Both the position numbers and the translations under genes were made by a program. Positions 8,692 to 15,697 of a DNA stretch of 57,588 bases are shown piece by piece. A model generated the notes under the pieces. That model was given only the letters and a program-made list of their open reading frames with translations, was not told where the DNA came from and made no database searches. The stretch is from Myxococcota bacterium (GTDB taxonomy: Bacteria > Myxococcota_A > UBA796 > UBA2385), in assembly GCA_023150805.1 (NCBI GenBank), contig JAKLKF010000035.1:1-57588 (forward strand). The letters run 5' to 3'. Positions within the stretch are counted from its first letter, which is position 1, and every line of letters starts with the position of its first letter.

Positions 8692-9527
8692 TCCCCGCCC
8701 ACCACCGCACCGGCCCCCCGGACGCGCCCCACACCGCCTGGTTCCTGCACGGCATCCTGGGCAGCGGCGCCAACTGGCGCGGCTTCGGCCGTCGCTTCGT
8801 CGAGCGCAATCCCGGCTGGAGCGCGGTCCTGGTCGACCTGCGCAACCACGGGGACAGCACCGGCGCCGCCCCGCCCCACACCCTGGCCGCCTGCGCCGAC
8901 GACCTGTGGGAGCTGGCCGGCGCCCTGGGCGGGCCGCCCGCCCTGCTGATCGGCCACTCCTTCGGCGGCAAGGTGGCCCTGACCTTCGCCGGGCAGGCGG
9001 CGCGGCTGGGCGCCACCGGCCCGGGCGCCCTGGCGCGCGTGTGGGTGCTCGACGCCTTCCCCGGCCCCTGGCCCGGCCGCCCCGAGGACGACGCCGAGGT
9101 GGTGGCCGTCATCGGCGCCCTCTCGCGGATCCCCCAGCCGCTCGCCGCGCGCGAGGACGTCGTCACCCACCTGACCGCCGCCGGCTTCTCCGTGGGCCTG
9201 GCCCGCTGGATGACCACCAACCTGCGCCACGACGGCACCGGCTACCGCTGGCGCTTCGACCTCCTGGCCGCGCGAGAGATGATCGCCGACTACTTCCGCG
9301 CCGACCTGTGGCCGGTGCTGGAGGACCCGGGCCCGGACCTGCACATCGACGTGGTGCGGGCCGCGCACAGCATGCGCTGGAGCGACCCGGAGCTGGCCCG
9401 CTTCGCCGCCCTGCCGCCGGACGGGCCCGTCCGCCTGCACCTGCTGCCCGACAGCGGCCACTGGGTCCACGTCGACAACCCCGACGGCCTGATGGAGCTG
9501 ATCGAGGCGGGGTCGGGCCTGCGCTGA
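8688..9527 (+). CDS. alpha/beta-hydrolase
   Basis: The protein has 279 residues with a complete alpha/beta-hydrolase core. The oxyanion region is FLHGILGSGANWRGF, the nucleophile elbow is GHSFGGK (Ser near residue 90), and the catalytic histidine lies in DSGHWVHVDNP near the C-terminus. No signal peptide is present, so it should be cytoplasmic. It resembles the YbfF/ABHD11-type esterase group. The ATG overlaps the dusA stop (ATGA), and the gene ends seven bases from the convergent methyltransferase gene. Substrate is unknown. Confidence 0.88.
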   Translation: MIPAHHRTGPPDAPHTAWFLHGILGSGANWRGFGRRFVERNPGWSAVLVDLRNHGDSTGAAPPHTLAACADDLWELAGALGGPPALLIGHSFGGKVALTFAGQAARLGATGPGALARVWVLDAFPGPWPGRPEDDAEVVAVIGALSRIPQPLAAREDVVTHLTAAGFSVGLARWMTTNLRHDGTGYRWRFDLLAAREMIADYFRADLWPVLEDPGPDLHIDVVRAAHSMRWSDPELARFAALPPDGPVRLHLLPDSGHWVHVDNPDGLMELIEAGSGLR

Positions 9528-9534
9528 GGCACCC

Positions 9535-10701
9535 TCAGCAGCACCCCGGCGTCGTGCACAGCGCGCCGGCCTCGGTCGTCTCGTCGTAGCCCTCGCCCTT
9601 TCGCTCGGCGGCCGACCGGATCAGCATGTCGACGCCGCAGGGGAAGGGGCGCACCTGCTCGGCCGGCACCGGCACCCGGGGCTCGATCCGCTCGAAGTGC
9701 TCGGCATAGGGCGCGCGGCCGTAGATCTCGAAGGTCTTGGCGCAGACGGCGACCGGCAGACCGCGCACCAGGCGGTGCCCGTCGTCGTCGTGGACCTCGC
9801 GGAAGGGACCCTTGTAGATGACGGCCTGCTTGTGGTCCCAGCAGGGCCCCTCCTTGCCCTTGTAGGCCACCACGGTCACGCTGCGGAACTCCACGCCCTC
9901 GACCGTGCGCCAGGGCGACACGTCCCGCTTCAGGAGCTGGACGCCGTACAGGCCGGCGTCGGTGAAGGCCTGCAGGAACAGGTCCTCGCGCATGGCGCCG
10001 GAGATGCAGCCCGTCCACAGCGCGGGGTCGGCCTGCAGGTGGGCGGGCACGTCGACGTCGCTGACGATGTCGGAGATCACGGCGCGCCCGCCGCGCCGCA
10101 GGACCCGGTGGATCTCCCGGAACATCACCGCCTTGTCCTCGGGGCGGACCAGGTTGAGCACGCAGTCGCTGACGACGACGTCCACGCTCTCGGCGCGGAC
10201 CAGGGGCTGCTCGGCGCGCAGCCGGGCCTGCTCGGCCTCCAGCGCCCCCAGGTCGGCCGCGCAGCGCACCGGGTGCTCGCCCAGCCAGGCGTCCAGCTTG
10301 TCCAGGTCCAGCGCCAGGTCCTGGATCCGGCCCTTGAGGAACCGGACGTTGTGGAAGCCGACGGCGCGGGCGAAGGCGGGCGCGTTGCGGCGGGCCAGGG
10401 CCAGCATGTCCTCGTTCATGTCGACGCCGATGACCCGTCCCTTGGGGCCGACCACCTGGGCCGCCAGGAACACGCCCTTGCCGCCGCCGCTGCCCAGGTC
10501 CAGCACGACCTCGCCGGCCTGGATCCAGGGGGTCGGGTCGCCGCAGCCGTAGTCGCGCTCCCGCACCTCGACCGGCACGGCCTGCAGCAGGCGCGGGTCG
10601 ACCAGCACGGGGCAGCACAGGTCCGCGGTGGGGTGCTCCGCTGCGGCGCTGTAGGTCGAGCGGACGTGGGCTTCGGGGTCGAGGGAGACGAAGTTGGTCA
10701 T
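9535..10701 (-). CDS. ArsM-like SAM-dependent methyltransferase with C-terminal extension
   Basis: The protein has 388 residues; ATG at 10701 begins MTNFVSL. The Rossmann SAM motif is VLDLGSGGGKGVFLAAQVV with GVDMNEDM following. LCCPV near residue 28 and ERDYGCGDPTPW are typical of a methyltransferase group related to arsenite methyltransferases. The cysteine pair that binds As(III) in ArsM appears conserved: SDCVLNLV and TGCISGAM. A ~120-residue C-terminal region contains further cysteines and the protein ends CTTPGCC, a plausible thiol or metalloid site. It is divergently transcribed from a second ArsM-like gene, a Cys-rich peptide and a radical SAM maturase. Methylation of arsenic is inferred from family; methylation of another thiophilic substrate is possible. 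Confidence 0.8.
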   Translation of the reverse strand: MTNFVSLDPEAHVRSTYSAAAEHPTADLCCPVLVDPRLLQAVPVEVRERDYGCGDPTPWIQAGEVVLDLGSGGGKGVFLAAQVVGPKGRVIGVDMNEDMLALARRNAPAFARAVGFHNVRFLKGRIQDLALDLDKLDAWLGEHPVRCAADLGALEAEQARLRAEQPLVRAESVDVVVSDCVLNLVRPEDKAVMFREIHRVLRRGGRAVISDIVSDVDVPAHLQADPALWTGCISGAMREDLFLQAFTDAGLYGVQLLKRDVSPWRTVEGVEFRSVTVVAYKGKEGPCWDHKQAVIYKGPFREVHDDDGHRLVRGLPVAVCAKTFEIYGRAPYAEHFERIEPRVPVPAEQVRPFPCGVDMLIRSAAERKGEGYDETTEAGALCTTPGCC

Positions 10702-10744
10702 CGCGGTGGCCTCGGGGCGCGGATGGGGTCGAGGTCGAGCGCCC

Positions 10745-10756
10745 GGCGACGTCGCC
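10745..10756. promoter_or_regulatory. perfect 12-bp palindrome in divergent promoter region
   Basis: GGCGACGTCGCC is a perfect inverted repeat in the 125-bp gap between the two divergent ArsM-like genes. A dimeric repressor site would fit there. No ArsR gene is nearby, and palindromes of this composition are not rare at this GC content, so this is only a candidate operator. Confidence 0.25.
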
Positions 10757-10826
10757 AGTGAGAGCCCGGCCCACGCGAATGGGTGCGGGCGCGAACCCAA
10801 CGAGCGGGACCTGGCTCTCCACAGGC

Positions 10827-11468
10827 GTGGACCCCTCCCACCAGGTCGCGCTGCAAGCGCGCTACGACGCCCTGGCCGCCCAGCCGGCCACCAGCCTGTC
10901 CTGTGGCGGCGCGGCCGACCTGGCCGAGCCGCTGCCCGGGCAGGTCTGCGTGGACCTGGGCTGCGGCCGCGGGCGGGACCTGGTGTCCCTGGCGCGCAAG
11001 GTGGGGCCGACCGGACGGGCCATCGGCCTGGACGCCTCGTCGCGCATGGTGGAGGCCGCCCGGGCCCGCGCCGAGGAGGAAGGGCTGGCCCAGGTGACGG
11101 TGCGTCCGTGCCCCCTGGAGGCGCTGGACCTGCCGGACGCCTCGGTCGACTGGATCGTCTCCAACTGCGCCCTCAACCACGCCCTGGACAAGCGGCGGGT
11201 CTGGGCCGAGATCGCGCGGGTCCTGCGGCCCGGCGGCCGCTTCGTCGTCAGCGACATCTACGCGGTGCAGCCCATCGACCCCGCCTTCCGACACGACCCG
11301 GTGGCCGTGGCCGAGTGCTGGGCCGGCGCCGAGACGAAGCCCGACTACCTGGGGCAGATCGCCGCGGCCGGCCTGGTGGATGTCGAGATCCTCAGCGAGC
11401 GAGCCCCCTACCGCAAGCAGCAGGCGCTGCTCTCCAGCTTCACCCTGCGGGGCCGACGCCCCGGATAG
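10827..11468 (+). CDS. short ArsM-like SAM-dependent methyltransferase
   Basis: The protein has 213 residues if started at GTG 10827 (VDPSHQVALQARYDAL), which matches where ArsM-type proteins begin; in-frame starts at 10779 (ATG) and 10758 (GTG) would add residues of low plausibility. The SAM site is VDLGCGRGRDLVSLARKVG with GLDASSRM. Cysteines sit where ArsM binds As(III): SCGG near the N-terminus, SNCALNH, and ECWAGAE. The post-SAM C-terminal region is shorter than in full ArsM. It heads the operon peptide-radical SAM-thioredoxin reductase, with only 33 bases to the peptide start. It may methylate a metalloid or the modified peptide; the family relation is firm, the substrate is not. Confidence 0.78.
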   Translation: MDPSHQVALQARYDALAAQPATSLSCGGAADLAEPLPGQVCVDLGCGRGRDLVSLARKVGPTGRAIGLDASSRMVEAARARAEEEGLAQVTVRPCPLEALDLPDASVDWIVSNCALNHALDKRRVWAEIARVLRPGGRFVVSDIYAVQPIDPAFRHDPVAVAECWAGAETKPDYLGQIAAAGLVDVEILSERAPYRKQQALLSSFTLRGRRPG

Positions 11469-11501
11469 GCCCCCCCCACCCCCCACACCGGAGGAGTGAC
11501 C

Positions 11502-11615
11502 ATGAAGTCCCTGATCAAGAAGCCCGCCGCCGCGGCCTGCTGCGTGCCCGCCCAGACCAAGGTCGCCCAGTGCTGCGCCAAGGTCTCCAAGAACGTCGCC
11601 GGCTGCCACGACTGA
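11502..11615 (+). CDS. 37-residue Cys-rich peptide, candidate radical-SAM-modified RiPP precursor
   Basis: This small frame begins MKSLIKKPAAAACC and ends CHD. ATG at 11502 is preceded by a strong ribosome site (GGAGG, seven bases). It has five cysteines at residues 13, 14, 24, 25 and 35, spaced CC-x9-CC-x9-C, with His36 after the last. The pattern reflects an 11-residue repeat (xCC...VA, xCC...VA, then GCH). The N-terminus is Lys-rich and could be a short leader. It lies between a methyltransferase and a radical SAM/SPASM protein, the classical position of a maturase substrate, and a hairpin separates it from the maturase gene. I do not recognise the peptide family. No export gene is adjacent, so it may remain intracellular. 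Alternatives are a small metallothionein or metalloid-binding peptide. Confidence 0.8.
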   Translation: MKSLIKKPAAAACCVPAQTKVAQCCAKVSKNVAGCHD

Positions 11616-11624
11616 ACCCTCGAC

Positions 11625-11659
11625 CGCGCGCCGGGCTCCTACGACTGGACCGGCGCGCG
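11625..11659 (+). terminator. 10-bp-stem hairpin between peptide and maturase genes
   Basis: CGCGCGCCGG (11625-11634) pairs perfectly with CCGGCGCGCG (11650-11659) around a 15-base loop, ten bases after the peptide stop codon. There is no U-tract. In such operons an intercistronic hairpin usually lowers maturase expression or stabilises the precursor mRNA. It also argues against an upstream GTG at 11659 as the maturase start. Confidence 0.55.
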
Positions 11660-11694
11660 TGTCCCCCCTCGCCGCGCCTCCGTCCGGAGACGCC

Positions 11695-13017
11695 GTGCAG
11701 CCCTCGCGTCACAACATCCTCACGCCGGTCGAGGGCAGCCAGAGCTGGCTGCTCCTGAACCTGCTCTCCGGGCAGGCCGACCTGCTCGACACGCCCACCG
11801 CCGAGCGCTTCCAGCGCGGCACCTACGACGATCCCGAGCAGCTCGCCGCGAAGGGCTACCTGGTGGATCCCGCCGAGGAGGCAGGGCGGCTGGCCGCGGC
11901 CCACGCGGCCTTCCAGGCGGGCCAGCAGGACGACGAGATCCAGCTCTTCTTCGTGGCGTCCTACGCCTGCAACTTCGGCTGCTCCTACTGCTTCCAGGAC
12001 GAGTACGCGCCCCAGCAGACCCACGACCCCGACGCGGTGATCGACGCGTTCTTCGCCTACGTCGACGACACCTTCGCCGGGCGCCGCAAGTACGTCACCC
12101 TGTTCGGCGGCGAGCCGCTGCTGCCGTCCGCCCGCGCCCGGCACGTCGTCGAGCGCATGATCGAGCAGACGCGCGCCCGCGGCCTGGACCTGGCCGTCAT
12201 CACCAATGGCTACAGCCTGGAGAGCTACGTCCCGCTCCTGGCCACCGGCAACATCCGCGAGGTCCAGGTCACCCTGGACGGCGCCCGCCAGGTGCACGAC
12301 CAGCGGCGCGCGCTCAAGGGCGGCGGCGCCACCTTCGACCGGGTCGTGGCCGGCGTCGACGCGGCGCTGGAGGCGGGGCTGACCGTCAACCTGCGGGCGG
12401 TGCTGGACAAGGAGAACCTGTCGGACTTCGGCAACCTGGCCCACTTCGCCATCGACCGGGGCTGGACGGACCGTCCGAACTTCAAGACCCAGGTCGGCCG
12501 CAACTACGAGCTGCACCACTGCCAGACGAACAACACCCGACTGTACACGCGCCTGTCCCTGTGGCAGGACATGTACCGCCTGATCGAGCAGGATCCCGAG
12601 ATCCTGGCCTTCTACCGCCCCGCCTACTCGGTCGCGCGCTTCCTCTTCGACGAGGGCCAGCTCCCCGACCCGCTGTTCGACTCCTGCCCCGCCACCAAGA
12701 CCGAGTGGGCCTTCGACGCCACCGGGGCCATCTACCCCTGCACCGCCAACGTCGGGAAGGCCGGCGAGGAGATCGGCAGCTTCTACCCCACCCGCTCGCT
12801 GCGCGGCGACCGCGTCGCGGACTGGAGCGGGCGCGACGTGACCACCATCCCCGGCTGCGCGGACTGCGCCCACCAGCTCGCCTGCGGCGGCGGATGCGGC
12901 GCGGTCTCCCAGAGCTGGAAGGGCGCCATCCGCGCCCCCGACTGCCGACCCGTCGGTGAGCTGCTCAGCCTGGGCAGTGCGCTGTATGGACAGCGCGAGC
13001 TCCCACGGGAACCCTGA
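11695..13017 (+). CDS. radical SAM/SPASM peptide maturase
   Basis: The protein has 440 residues from GTG 11695 (CGGAGA four bases upstream). The N-terminal ~80 residues (RHNILTPVEG, LLLNLLSGQADLLD) resemble the peptide-engaging region found in many SPASM maturases. The SAM-cluster motif CNFGCSYC uses Cys92, Cys96 and Cys99, followed by the LFGGEPLL SAM-binding segment. The C-terminal SPASM domain is complete: C-x12-G-x4-C, then C-x2-C-x5-C-x3-C, then a final Cys in APDCRP, enough for two auxiliary [4Fe-4S] clusters. SPASM enzymes modify ribosomal peptides (thioethers, C-C crosslinks) or act on sulfatases. No sulfatase is nearby, and the adjacent 37-residue Cys-rich peptide is the obvious substrate. 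Thioether formation from its cysteines is inference. Confidence 0.9.
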   Translation: MQPSRHNILTPVEGSQSWLLLNLLSGQADLLDTPTAERFQRGTYDDPEQLAAKGYLVDPAEEAGRLAAAHAAFQAGQQDDEIQLFFVASYACNFGCSYCFQDEYAPQQTHDPDAVIDAFFAYVDDTFAGRRKYVTLFGGEPLLPSARARHVVERMIEQTRARGLDLAVITNGYSLESYVPLLATGNIREVQVTLDGARQVHDQRRALKGGGATFDRVVAGVDAALEAGLTVNLRAVLDKENLSDFGNLAHFAIDRGWTDRPNFKTQVGRNYELHHCQTNNTRLYTRLSLWQDMYRLIEQDPEILAFYRPAYSVARFLFDEGQLPDPLFDSCPATKTEWAFDATGAIYPCTANVGKAGEEIGSFYPTRSLRGDRVADWSGRDVTTIPGCADCAHQLACGGGCGAVSQSWKGAIRAPDCRPVGELLSLGSALYGQRELPREP

Positions 13018-13032
13018 GAGGAGAGTCATCCC

Positions 13033-14322
13033 ATGTCCGAGTCTGTCCACGAGATCAGCGCCGCCGAGTTCCCCGCGCTGCGCGCCTCCAAGAAGGCCCT
13101 GGTCGTCGACTTCTACTCGACCGAGTGCCCCCCGTGCGAGGCGCTGGCGTCGAAGTACGACGCGGTGGCCGAGCTGTTCCACGACGACGTCGAGTTCGTC
13201 AAGATCTTCCGCCAGGGCAACCGGGAGCTGGCGACCGAGCTGGGGGTCAAGGGCTCGCCCACCGTGCTGTTCTTCAAGGACGGCCAGGAGGTCGGCCACC
13301 GCCTGACCAGCGCCATCAAGCGCTCCGAGCTGCTCGAGGGCGTGCGCGAGCTGGAGCCGGCCGAGCGCTTCGCGTCGATCCTGGGCCAGGTGCAGCCCTC
13401 GGAGCTGGACGTCGACGTGCTCATCCTCGGCGCGGGCCCCGCGGGGGTGACCGCCGCCATCTACTGCGCGCAGGCGCGGCTGAAGACCGTCATGGTCGAC
13501 CTGGGCCTGGGCGGCGGAAACGTCGCCACGACCCACCAGGTCAGCAACTTCCCGGGCTTCCCCAAGCCGATGCCCGGCTACCTGCTGGCCGACCACATGG
13601 TCGAGCAGGCCAAGGCGGCCGGCGTGATCCCCCGCCTGGCGGCCGAGGTCACCGGCGTGGACATCGCCAACAAGACCGTCGTGCTGGACGGGGTCGAGAC
13701 GATCCGCGCCCGCCGCATGGTGATCGCCACCGGCAGCTCGCCGAGGGTGATCGGCGTGAAGGGAGAGCGGGAGTTCAAGGGCAGGGGTGTGTCCTACTGC
13801 GCGACCTGCGACGCCAAGTACCAGGAGGGCAAGCACGTCGTGGTGATCGGCGGCGGCAACTCGGCCATCGAGGAGTCCCTGTTCATCGCGCGCTTCGCCG
13901 ACCGGATCACCATCGTCAACCAGTTCCCGGACCTGCAGGCCAACCAGCACGCCCAGGAGCAGGCCAGGGCCGAGCCGAAGATCCGCTTCCGCCTGGCCAC
14001 CCAGCCGCGCGAGTTCCTGTCGCGCTCGGGCCGGGGCGTGGACGGCGTGCTGGTCGAGGACCTGGTCACGCACGAGCGGTCGATCATCGACTGTGACGCG
14101 GTCTTCGTCTTCGCCGGGATGGTGCCCAACCTCGACCAGCTCCAGGGCGTGTTCCAGCTCGACGCCTGGGGCTACATCGCCACCGACGACGAGATGCGGA
14201 CCAGCGTCCCCGGCGTGTTCGCGATCGGCGACGTCTCCAGCAAGAAGTTCCGCCAGATCACGACCGCCGTGGCCGACGGCACCATCGCCTCGATGGCCAT
14301 CGCCCGGGACCTGGCGAGCTGA
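13033..14322 (+). CDS. thioredoxin-thioredoxin reductase fusion
   Basis: The protein has 429 residues. Residues 1-105 are a thioredoxin domain with CPPC at 32-35 (rather than the usual CGPC) and cis-Pro in GVKGSPTVLF. Residues ~127-429 are a TrxB-type FAD/NADPH oxidoreductase: VLILGAGPAGVTAA for FAD, redox-active CATC at 256-259, VVIGGGNSAIEE for NADPH, and GVFAIGDV near the end. AGGAGAG precedes the ATG, and the gap to the maturase is 15 bases, so it belongs to the same operon. In fusions, TrxR commonly precedes Trx; here Trx is N-terminal. It probably keeps cysteines of the peptide, the maturase or the methyltransferases reduced, or reduces methylated arsenicals (inference). Confidence 0.92.
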   Translation: MSESVHEISAAEFPALRASKKALVVDFYSTECPPCEALASKYDAVAELFHDDVEFVKIFRQGNRELATELGVKGSPTVLFFKDGQEVGHRLTSAIKRSELLEGVRELEPAERFASILGQVQPSELDVDVLILGAGPAGVTAAIYCAQARLKTVMVDLGLGGGNVATTHQVSNFPGFPKPMPGYLLADHMVEQAKAAGVIPRLAAEVTGVDIANKTVVLDGVETIRARRMVIATGSSPRVIGVKGEREFKGRGVSYCATCDAKYQEGKHVVVIGGGNSAIEESLFIARFADRITIVNQFPDLQANQHAQEQARAEPKIRFRLATQPREFLSRSGRGVDGVLVEDLVTHERSIIDCDAVFVFAGMVPNLDQLQGVFQLDAWGYIATDDEMRTSVPGVFAIGDVSSKKFRQITTAVADGTIASMAIARDLAS

Positions 14323-14330
14323 GCCCCGGC

Positions 14331-14345
14331 CGGCGCCCCGCGCCG
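14331..14345. terminator. GC hairpin between convergent genes
   Basis: CGGCGC, a CCC loop and GCGCCG form a perfect 6-bp stem in the 40-bp gap between the convergent thioredoxin reductase fusion and diguanylate cyclase genes. No T-tract follows on either strand, so terminator function is a guess from position. Confidence 0.3.
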
Positions 14346-14362
14346 CCGCCCGGGCGCGCCCG

Positions 14363-15697
14363 CTACCGCAGGCTGTCCACGACCTCGTCCGCGCCGTCGC
14401 CGTCGCCCTCCGCGGGCCGCACGCCGTCGGCCGGCGACAGGGAGTCCACCGCCGTGTCCGGCGCCTGCTCGGCGCTCACCGCCACCCCGCCACCCCGCCG
14501 CTTGGCCTCGTAGAGCGCCGCGTCCGCCTGGTGCAGCAGCGCCTCGGCCAGCAGCTTCGCCTCGGACACCGCCTCGCCCGGGGCCAGCGCCTCCTCCGAC
14601 GCGGCCTCGAAGCGGGCGTAGCCCATGCTGGTCGCCAACCGGCGCCCGCTGGGCAGCCCGATCACCTCGGCCTCCGCCAGGGCCCGGTGGAAGCGGGACA
14701 CGGCCTCGGGCGCGGCGTGCGGGGTCGCCGTCGGCAGGATCACCGCGAACTCGTCCCCGCCCAGCCGGCAGACCATGTCGGTGCGCCGGAAGGTCTCGCC
14801 CAGCAGGCGCGCCACGGTGCGCAGGACCTCGTCCCCGGCCGGGTGGCCGTACTTGTCGTTCACCCGCTTGAAGCGGTCGACGTCCACCAGCAGCAGCACG
14901 ACCGCGCCCCGGTCACGCCGGGCCCGCTCGACCTCCATCGGCAGGGCGCTGTCGAACCAGCGGCGGTTGAAGCAGCCGGTGAGCGGGTCGCGGATCGCCT
15001 GCTCCCGCGCCTCGGCCAGGGCCTCGCGCAAGGCGCGCTCCTGCTGCCGGATGTGGTCGCGGGCCTGCCGGAGCGCCTCGTTGCGGCGCGCGAGGTCCCG
15101 CTCGAGGTGCCTCGTCGCGTGGTGGGCCGACAGGCCCAGGACGAAGAGGATGGTGGCGAAGACCACCGCGCCCGACCAGCGCTGGGCCGGCGTGACCAGG
15201 ACCTCGACGGGCAGCACCGCCAGGTTCTCCAGCCACAGCACCCCGGTGATGCCCGCCAGGCAGGCCAGGCTCCAGCCCAGCGCCGCGCGGCGGCCGAACT
15301 GGTAGCTGACCAGGGCGGGCAGCCCGGCGAGGAACCACAGCACCGTCGACTGCGAGCCGCCGGACAGGGCCGAAGCGAACACCAGCGCCACCAGGCACAG
15401 CCCCGCGTGCACGTGTGCCGCCAGGCGGCTTCGTCGCGGCTCCCCGGCCCAGGCCATCGCCAGCAGCGCCGCGGTCCCCCCCGCCGCGCCGAGCTGGACG
15501 GCCGCCGTGCGCGGATGGGCCAGCACCAGCGCCTGCACGCCGAACAACGTCCAGGCCACCAGGCAGATCGCGAGCACGTCCCGGATGCGGCGCGCGTGCA
15601 CCCCGGCGTGCCCACGATCCTCGGCCGGCGCCCCCGCGGCGGCGGTGGACCGCCGGGCGTCGCCGGGTTCGCGAGCGCTGGGTTCGACCTGCTGCAC
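14363..15697 (-). CDS. membrane-bound diguanylate cyclase (GGDEF)
   Basis: The protein has 444 residues from GTG 15697. Residues ~38-190 hold about five to six hydrophobic helices forming a membrane sensor. A charged coiled coil (~195-235) leads to a GGDEF domain with RDPLTGCFNRRWF, VDVDRFKRVNDKYGH and the active site RLGGDEF at 311-317. An RxxD inhibitory site (Arg304-Asp307) lies five residues before GGDEF, so product feedback by c-di-GMP is expected. No EAL domain is present. The C-terminal ~50 residues are acidic and low-complexity. A TAGGAT -10 element lies 24 bases before the start. The gene faces the maturase operon tail to tail and is probably unrelated to it. Confidence 0.93.
   Translation of the reverse strand: MQQVEPSAREPGDARRSTAAAGAPAEDRGHAGVHARRIRDVLAICLVAWTLFGVQALVLAHPRTAAVQLGAAGGTAALLAMAWAGEPRRSRLAAHVHAGLCLVALVFASALSGGSQSTVLWFLAGLPALVSYQFGRRAALGWSLACLAGITGVLWLENLAVLPVEVLVTPAQRWSGAVVFATILFVLGLSAHHATRHLERDLARRNEALRQARDHIRQQERALREALAEAREQAIRDPLTGCFNRRWFDSALPMEVERARRDRGAVVLLLVDVDRFKRVNDKYGHPAGDEVLRTVARLLGETFRRTDMVCRLGGDEFAVILPTATPHAAPEAVSRFHRALAEAEVIGLPSGRRLATSMGYARFEAASEEALAPGEAVSEAKLLAEALLHQADAALYEAKRRGGGVAVSAEQAPDTAVDSLSPADGVRPAEGDGDGADEVVDSLR

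What the first reader, a model, noticed from the sequence alone, without database searches (positions are those of the whole stretch)
9535..14322. Undescribed peptide-modification cluster linking ArsM-like methyltransferases, a Cys-rich peptide, a SPASM maturase and a Trx-TrxR fusion
Five genes sit together around one divergent promoter: two ArsM-like methyltransferases, a 37-residue peptide, a complete radical SAM/SPASM enzyme and a thioredoxin-reductase fusion. Family knowledge says SPASM enzymes modify adjacent small peptides, ArsM enzymes methylate As(III) held by cysteines, and Trx systems supply thiols. The inference is a thiol-rich modified peptide that binds, methylates or carries arsenic or another soft metal. 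I know no described pathway with this exact set. No arsR, arsC, acr3 or exporter is present, so the arsenic link rests on the methyltransferases only.
Basis: partly seen in the sequence, partly recalled or inferred. Interest (0 to 1): 0.95.

Follow-up and report, generated by a model that had tools for sequence, protein, structure and literature searches.

The report
Peptide-assisted metalloid methylation gene module
Uncultured bacteria of at least four phyla carry, side by side, a tiny gene for a peptide ending in the same cysteine-rich tail, a radical-SAM enzyme predicted to modify that peptide, a relative of arsenic methyltransferases that keeps their three arsenic-holding cysteines, and a thioredoxin system; together they would likely make and use an undescribed peptide on which arsenic or a similar element is methylated.

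Summary
MT2 (ArsM-like) - peptide - radical SAM/SPASM - Trx-TrxR is a conserved module. Of 81 distinct loci (window plus the 80 best of 343 confirmed relatives; Myxococcota, Spirochaetota, Bacteroidota, others) 79 encode a peptide ending CC-x9-CHD, 78 MT2, 77 TrxR. A census of 377 Myxococcota genomes starting from the peptide finds 16 places; all 16 have MT2 beside them, and MT2's 16 best hits are those places. The rSAM model aligns best with CteB, a thioether-forming RiPP maturase. MT2 keeps ArsM's three As(III)-binding cysteines wherever they can be read. Corrections: the second methyltransferase (MT1) is beside the module in only 2 of 81 loci, the leader-side CC in 12 of 79 peptides. Against arsenic: acr3 is never on a module contig (15 genomes), and no ars family recurs among 203 neighbour proteins; an ArsR-type regulator heads the operon in 1 of 16 census places. 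No Pfam or NCBIfam model matches the peptide, no listed NCBIfam model reaches its cut-off on its partners, and my paper searches found no description. Chemistry and element are inferred.

The parts
11502..11615 (+). Precursor peptide gene, 37 aa; N-terminal MKSLIKK, C-terminal AQCCAKVSKNVAGCHD then stop
   Evidence: tail in 79 of 81 distinct loci. No Pfam/NCBIfam match at E 0.01.
11565..11612 (+). Conserved peptide tail (residues 22-37), AQCC-AK-x-S-x4-GCHD
   Evidence: 9 of 16 positions fixed in 80 of 80 (C, C, C, H, D were required by the pattern used there; A, A, K, G were not), Q and S in 79; synonymous codons vary. One search shows the same tails without the pattern.
11490..11496 (+). Shine-Dalgarno-like GGAGGAG of the peptide gene
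   Evidence: Read; functional role inferred.
10758..11468 (+). MT2, short ArsM-like methyltransferase (236 aa as listed; GTG 10827 is a likelier start)
   Evidence: Cys49/137/187 = CmArsM Cys72/174/224; 78 of 81 distinct loci.
11659..13017 (+). Radical SAM/SPASM peptide maturase (GTG 11695 is a likelier start); RRE-like residues 13-90, CNFGCSYC at 104-111, SPASM Cys 343/361/400/403/409/413/429, extra conserved Cys288
13033..14322 (+). Thioredoxin-thioredoxin reductase fusion (Trx first, CPPC; TrxR CATC)
   Evidence: Trx cysteines in 76 of 77 copies, reductase CxxC in 75 of 77; 77 of 81 distinct loci.
9535..10701 (-). MT1, full-length ArsM-like methyltransferase, divergent; accessory, not part of the conserved module
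   Evidence: ArsM structures best; full-length copy beside the module only in the window and L032.

Best explanation
This is a conserved gene module in which a short cysteine-rich peptide is predicted to be modified by its partner radical SAM/SPASM enzyme and then likely serves as the thiol carrier on which the ArsM-like MT2 would methylate a trivalent metalloid, arsenic being the likeliest, with the Trx-TrxR fusion likely supplying electrons. Shown here: the four genes travel together across phyla; the peptide tail AQCCAKxS....GCHD is under selection at the protein level; the maturase has the cysteines of a radical SAM core and a complete SPASM domain, an RRE-like predicted N-terminus, and resembles CteB; MT2 is a distinct branch of the ArsM family that keeps the three arsenic-binding cysteines. 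Inferred: (1) the RRE-like domain binds the MKSLIKK leader; (2) the enzyme ties one of the tail cysteines to a nearby residue (thioether); (3) the remaining thiols hold As(III) or a like element and pass it to MT2; (4) Trx-TrxR keeps peptide and MT2 cysteines reduced; (5) the product acts inside the cell, since no exporter or peptidase family is shared by more than a few loci.
For: Co-occurrence and order in 81 loci; peptide-first census, 16 of 16 places with MT2, MT2 census giving the same 16 places with a gap from 173 to 154 bits, rSAM in the same genomes except two contig-end cases, all 12 strong TrxR hits on module contigs. Codon evidence for selection on the tail. Cys triad in MT2 75/75, 78/78, 78/78 non-gap rows (79 rows, L002 included); also in 17 of 17 next-best hits, taken as ArsM-like by score only; complete in none of 5 low-scoring methyltransferases. 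The four best PDB sequence matches of MT2 are ArsM entries, as are the three top structural rows, one with As(III) bound. CteB is the best match of the rSAM. Correlated divergence of the three proteins, r 0.67-0.82 against a maximum of 0.18 in 999 permutations, 65 loci. 28 other rSAM loci of the relatives search have no MT2, TrxR or peptide tail within the roughly 1.5 kb flanks held. In G225 contig 80 an ArsR-type regulator and a further thioredoxin precede MT2. Role of the triad in ArsM: PMC3877260, passages.
Confidence: 0.4

Rival explanations
1. MT2 methylates the peptide itself (a cysteine thiol, the C-terminal Asp or His), so the module makes a methylated thioether RiPP with no metalloid; the ArsM cysteines then hold the peptide thiol by disulfide or bind a structural metal.
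For: MT2 is found strictly with the peptide (16 of 16) and has module-specific cysteines (45/46 and 64) absent from nearly all of the 17 controls, which suggests a changed substrate; acr3 is never beside it.
Against: The As(III) triad shows no substitution in any readable copy; the best sequence matches with a structure are ArsM.
Confidence: 0.27
2. The matured peptide is a small redox thiol or soft-metal (Cu, Hg, Zn) carrier, a dedicated partner of the Trx-TrxR fusion, and MT2 has a side role such as repair or thiol capping.
For: A dedicated Trx-TrxR in 77 of 81 loci; vicinal CC plus CHD is a plausible metal or redox site (inference); neighbours in part of the loci are DUF1847, DUF6132, DUF302 and Crp/Fnr genes, not resistance genes.
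Against: MT2 is as constant as the peptide, so methylation looks central; L039, L042 and L086 have downstream sequence but no TrxR.
Confidence: 0.2
3. The C-terminal residues are cut out to give a small thiol cofactor (as PQQ or mycofactocin come from peptides); Cys-His of GCHD could be joined into a thio-histidine that MT2 methylates.
For: The last residues and the stop hardly vary (in one search CHD-stop was required by the pattern); cross-phylum conservation is more like a cofactor than an antibiotic (inference).
Against: No peptidase family is shared by more than 2 of the 203 neighbour proteins in the rows shown; the fixed region reaches back to AQCC, beyond what a two-residue product needs.
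Confidence: 0.08
4. An ordinary arsenic detoxification operon or a chance line-up of unrelated genes.
For: MT1 and MT2 are ArsM-like; an ArsR-type gene heads one copy.
Against: Cross-phylum co-occurrence; no acr3 on module contigs.
Confidence: 0.04

Closest known systems
CteB / SCIFF-type ranthipeptide maturases (PDB 5wgg, 5why)
   Same: RRE-like N-terminus, radical SAM core, SPASM domain, short Cys-rich precursor next to it (CteB's RRE and thioether from PMC8326336, passages)
   Different: About 18% identity; SCIFF model far below cut-off (75.9 of 425 bits); MT2 and Trx-TrxR partners
TIGR04463 (rSAM_vs_C_rich) and CefB (NF038107) maturase families
   Same: Best-scoring NCBIfam models, aligned over most of the enzyme, both named for Cys-rich targets
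   Different: 119.6 of 525 and 108.7 of 600 bits; not members
ArsM arsenite methyltransferase (CmArsM, PDB 4fr0, 6cx6)
   Different: No C-terminal domain, extra Cys45/46 and Cys64 in most copies, often a Cys-rich tail; in the census always beside the peptide gene and never on a contig with acr3
Arsinothricin arsQML and arsenosugar ArsM/ArsS
   Same: An ArsM and a radical SAM enzyme working in sequence on arsenic (PMC8552651, passages)
   Different: ArsL is said to have only the three core cysteines and acts on As(III) without a peptide; arsQML has a transporter gene

Membership tests
RiPP biosynthetic system (general) | Short precursor gene conserved beside a dedicated modifying enzyme | tested here: met
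RiPP biosynthetic system (general) | Modified product observed | not testable with these tools
   Needs mass spectrometry
Thioether (sacti-/ranthi-) SPASM maturase | CxxxCxxC core plus seven-cysteine SPASM | tested here: met
   core Cys 81 of 82, SPASM Cys 80 of 82 aligned copies
Thioether (sacti-/ranthi-) SPASM maturase | RRE domain | tested here: inconclusive
   Three strands and three helices at residues 13-90, aligned to CteB from its first residue; the VIA answer says this part is barely tested; no Pfam PqqD-type match
Thioether (sacti-/ranthi-) SPASM maturase | Thioether formed | not testable with these tools
   -
TIGR04463 / CefB / PapB / SCIFF maturases (NCBIfam) | Curated score cut-off | tested here: not met
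   119.6/525, 108.7/600, 96.6/340, 75.9/425 bits
ArsM arsenite methyltransferase (MT2) | Three As(III)-binding cysteines | tested here: met
ArsM arsenite methyltransferase (MT2) | NCBIfam NF008823 cut-off | tested here: not met
   162.4 of 263 bits
ArsM arsenite methyltransferase (MT2) | Methylates As(III) | not testable with these tools
   -
Arsinothricin / arsenosugar pathway | ArsM of NF040538 / NF038099 | tested here: not met
   MT1 322.7/500 and 126.2/400; MT2 77.8/500 and 66.3/400
Thioredoxin reductase (TIGR01292) | Curated cut-off and CxxC | tested here: not met
   296.4 of 343.45 bits, although the CxxC is present and Pfam domains pass

The most novel reading that the evidence does not exclude
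A ribosomal organometalloid pathway: the SPASM enzyme forms a carbon-arsenic (or other carbon-metalloid) bond on the peptide tail, and MT2 methylates the peptide-borne arsenic, as ArsL and ArsM do in sequence for arsinothricin; the product would be the first RiPP with a metalloid built into it, hidden so far because every one of the 80 best carriers is an uncultured genome.
Probability: 0.1. Interest if true: 0.97.

Novelty: new variant of a known kind. Interest (0 to 1): 0.82.

Why it matters
It defines a precursor family with a strikingly rigid tail, spread over at least four phyla, and couples RiPP maturation to an enzyme family known for methylating arsenic. It gives a direct test of whether ribosomal peptides take part in metalloid chemistry, and a lead on function for a large group of radical SAM genes that sources leave unnamed or call 'uncharacterized' (3198 matches at E <= 0.001 among 7996 scored candidates; how many are true members is not known).

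Tried and rejected
Rejected: MT1 as a core gene (2 of 81 loci). Rejected: the leader CC as a core feature. Rejected: chance association (28 other rSAM loci have none of the partners within the flanks held). Plasmid or phage origin: no match in the named collections at E 1e-40. No Rfam match in 9000-15000 and no sigma-70-like promoter in 9300-14700. Neighbour scan for ars genes: 203 of the 230 ORFs of the filter (lower-GC loci L044-L110; 27 left out by me) were scanned, but only the 25 commonest families of each batch are shown, so singletons could be hidden; acr3 and ArsR-type HTH were then searched in the 15 module genomes. An idea that the peptide's extra CC replaces the lost CC of MT2 failed: 8 loci have both, 4 neither, 57 only MT2's, 4 only the peptide's (73 loci without gaps). 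A separate ArsM-like gene is in 9 of 14 peptide-bearing genomes against 155 of 363 others (my count); not clearly different. Database search with a 42-aa relative of the peptide: 20 of 20 candidates listed at E <= 10, 12 of them below 1e-5, none named beyond 'hypothetical protein'. Paper searches that found no description: (listings; PMC13188914 by passages; PMC10352776 by passages, no such cluster in them). Searches were for background. VIA lists do not exclude other families.
Full report
What is there. Window 9535-14322 holds MT1 (-), MT2, a 37-codon gene, a radical SAM/SPASM gene and a Trx-TrxR fusion gene (all +). The peptide reads MKSLIKKPAAAACCVPAQTKVAQCCAKVSKNVAGCHD and has no match in Pfam or NCBIfam at E 0.01.

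Is it a unit? I scanned one genome per species (84,980 species) with an alignment of 34 relatives of the rSAM (A1). Of 350 stretches, 343 encode a relative; the best 80 were kept. These are the closest ones, so the figures below speak for them and not for all 343. Titles name 18 Myxococcota or 'delta' records, 18 Spirochaetes, 35 Bacteroidota, 3 Ignavibacteria, 1 Neomarinimicrobiota and 5 unnamed bacteria (my count; two records, L096 and L100, are of one genome); every title says MAG or uncultured. With the window, and with L002 set aside as the same record as L042, 81 distinct loci: peptide tail in 79 (not L039, whose contig starts 90 bases before the rSAM, and not L091), MT2 in 78 (not L039, L091, L098), TrxR in 77 (not L039, L042, L086, L107; L107's contig ends there). 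Order is MT2, peptide, rSAM, TrxR; in L088 TrxR lies upstream. Median gaps are 38.5, 56 and 45 bases; in 60 of the 76 loci with TrxR downstream the rSAM-TrxR gap is under 200.

A census that does not start from the rSAM. In 377 Myxococcota genomes, the peptide profile hits 16 places in 14 genomes. All 16 have MT2 directly beside the peptide. Fourteen have the rSAM (in part or whole) next to it; in the other two, TrxR follows the peptide and the rSAM lies beyond it, pointing back (whole in G105; in G330 a fragment cut by the contig end). A search with MT2 gives 16 places at 173 bits or more, the same 16; the next hit has 153.7 bits. The rSAM profile gives 14 genomes at E <= 1e-40, of which 13 are peptide genomes; the 14th (G195) appears to be the L039 record, where the contig ends. 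Strong TrxR hits (E <= 1e-90) are 12 in 10 genomes, all on the module contigs; of the peptide genomes without one, G105 and G330 have a weaker TrxR beside the peptide, G218's piece ends early, and G086 has none near. The module is rare and patchy: the window's two genus mates in the sample lack it. One genome (G225) has three copies.

Selection. In 80 peptides (79 distinct loci plus L002) the last 16 positions read A, Q (79), C, C, A, K, x, S (79), variable, variable, mostly V, mostly A, G, C, H, D, stop. C, C, C, H, D and the stop were required by the pattern of that call; A, A, K and G were not, and the listing shows the same tails without the pattern. Codons vary freely: K 40 AAG and 40 AAA, second C 41 TGC and 39 TGT, A all four codons. 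So the protein is selected, not the DNA. The leader-side CC is in 13 of these 80 (12 of 79 distinct), mostly Myxococcota. A start like MKSL is found in 69 of 79 by a simple rule; the other ten include alternative start choices of my script.

MT2. CmArsM entries are the best sequence matches; the alignment puts MT2 Cys49, 137 and 187 on CmArsM Cys72, 174 and 224, and the entries 5eg5 (C72A) and 5jx7 (C224A) fix the numbering. These three bind As(III) and are needed for the first methylation (PMC3877260, passages). In 79 MT2 rows they are Cys in 75 of 75, 78 of 78 and 78 of 78 non-gap cells. In 17 controls, the next-best MT2 hits, all three are Cys; I call these ArsM-like by score, so they are not an independent standard. 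In 5 low-scoring methyltransferases of the window's genome none has the set (one has the first) (the row L133 of that call is the window's MT2 again and is not counted). MT2-only cysteines: 45 (69 of 79; controls 1 of 17), 46 (67; 0), 64 (74; 0). The window's own MT2 lacks the 45/46 pair. The three top structural rows are ArsM at 31-33% identity, but other methyltransferases follow within 1-2 Z at 17-28%, so the fold alone does not decide. The module copies form one branch (support 0.9). Many end in a Cys-rich tail; 32 of 79 have CC in the last 15 residues.

Trx-TrxR. CPPC in the window's thioredoxin part (both Cys in 76 of 77 copies) and CxxC in the reductase (75 of 77). Where the NADPH site is expected, copies read mostly HQF..LQAN; that the usual motif is HRRxxxR is recalled, so the electron donor is open.

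History. Distances of the three proteins correlate (r 0.67, 0.68, 0.82; largest of 999 permutations 0.18; 65 loci), which shared descent of the hosts could in part explain. On the rSAM tree the phylum label changes at least 8 times, against 4 if each of five groups were one clade, so some transfer between phyla is likely.

Context. Of 230 neighbour ORFs in lower-GC loci I scanned 203 (123 and 80); none of the 25 commonest Pfam families shown for either batch is an ars family, nor any of the 25 NCBIfam families shown for the first. Recurrent neighbours, named from one member each, are DUF1847 (22 loci), DUF6132 (21), Crp/Fnr (12), DUF302 (11) and MarR (8). In the 15 Myxococcota genomes with peptide or rSAM, acr3 matches are 15 in 12 genomes (11 over cut-off), none on a module contig. 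In G121, G222, G225 and G227 the separate ArsM-like gene lies next to acr3: ordinary ArsM keeps ordinary company, MT2 does not. ArsR-type HTH matches are 63 in these genomes; two are on module contigs, one of them heading the module of G225 contig 80, where an ArsR-type gene, a thioredoxin, MT2 and the peptide follow one another. Three related loci (L038, L039, L042) have ABC export genes downstream.

Reading. The RiPP part is nearly sure in outline: a dedicated, selected precursor beside a peptide-type maturase. The metalloid part rests on the untouched Cys triad of MT2, and is weakened by the lack of ars context and by MT2's own changes. I therefore commit to a peptide that carries a trivalent metalloid for MT2, at moderate confidence, and keep peptide methylation as the main rival. 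Nothing in the paper searches describes the set; the library is open-access only, so that is not proof of novelty.

Noticed in passing
L116, L125, L126 (genome G225): One Myxococcota genome carries three copies of MT2-peptide-rSAM on three contigs.
   Followed up: partly
L179:1356-3025 (G225 contig 80): ArsR-type regulator, a stand-alone thioredoxin, MT2 and the peptide gene follow one another on one strand; the regulator's ligand would tell what the module responds to.
   Followed up: partly
L091: rSAM and Trx-TrxR without MT2 or peptide tail anywhere in 17 kb; a DUF6132-like small gene lies upstream.
   Followed up: partly
L122, L124 (G105, G330): Variant arrangement: rSAM lies beyond TrxR and is convergent with it; in G330 it is cut by the contig end.
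   Followed up: yes
L063:8916-9473 and 21 other loci: A DUF1847 gene recurs beside the module, in six Bacteroidota loci between rSAM and TrxR; role unknown.
   Followed up: partly
L038, L039, L042 downstream: Genes of an ABC export set (HlyD-type adaptor, FtsX/MacB-type permease; ATPase seen in L042) follow the module in three related loci; these may bear on export of a product.
   Followed up: partly
13033-14322: The reductase half reads NQF..LQAN (mostly HQF..LQAN in relatives) where the NADPH-phosphate motif is expected; electron donor may differ.
   Followed up: partly
P0049: A 724-aa predicted protein joins MT2 and rSAM in one frame; the stretch between looks like the peptide gene read in another frame.
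   Followed up: no
genome contig C11:48195-48701 (L129) and C9:11697-12686 (L127): The window's genome has a separate ArsM-like gene, and one acr3 with an ArsR-type gene just before it, on other contigs than the module.
   Followed up: partly
G121 contig 107 (L119): The rSAM copy is matched in two pieces, one of them with a TGA inside; possibly broken or an assembly fault. Left as is.
   Followed up: no
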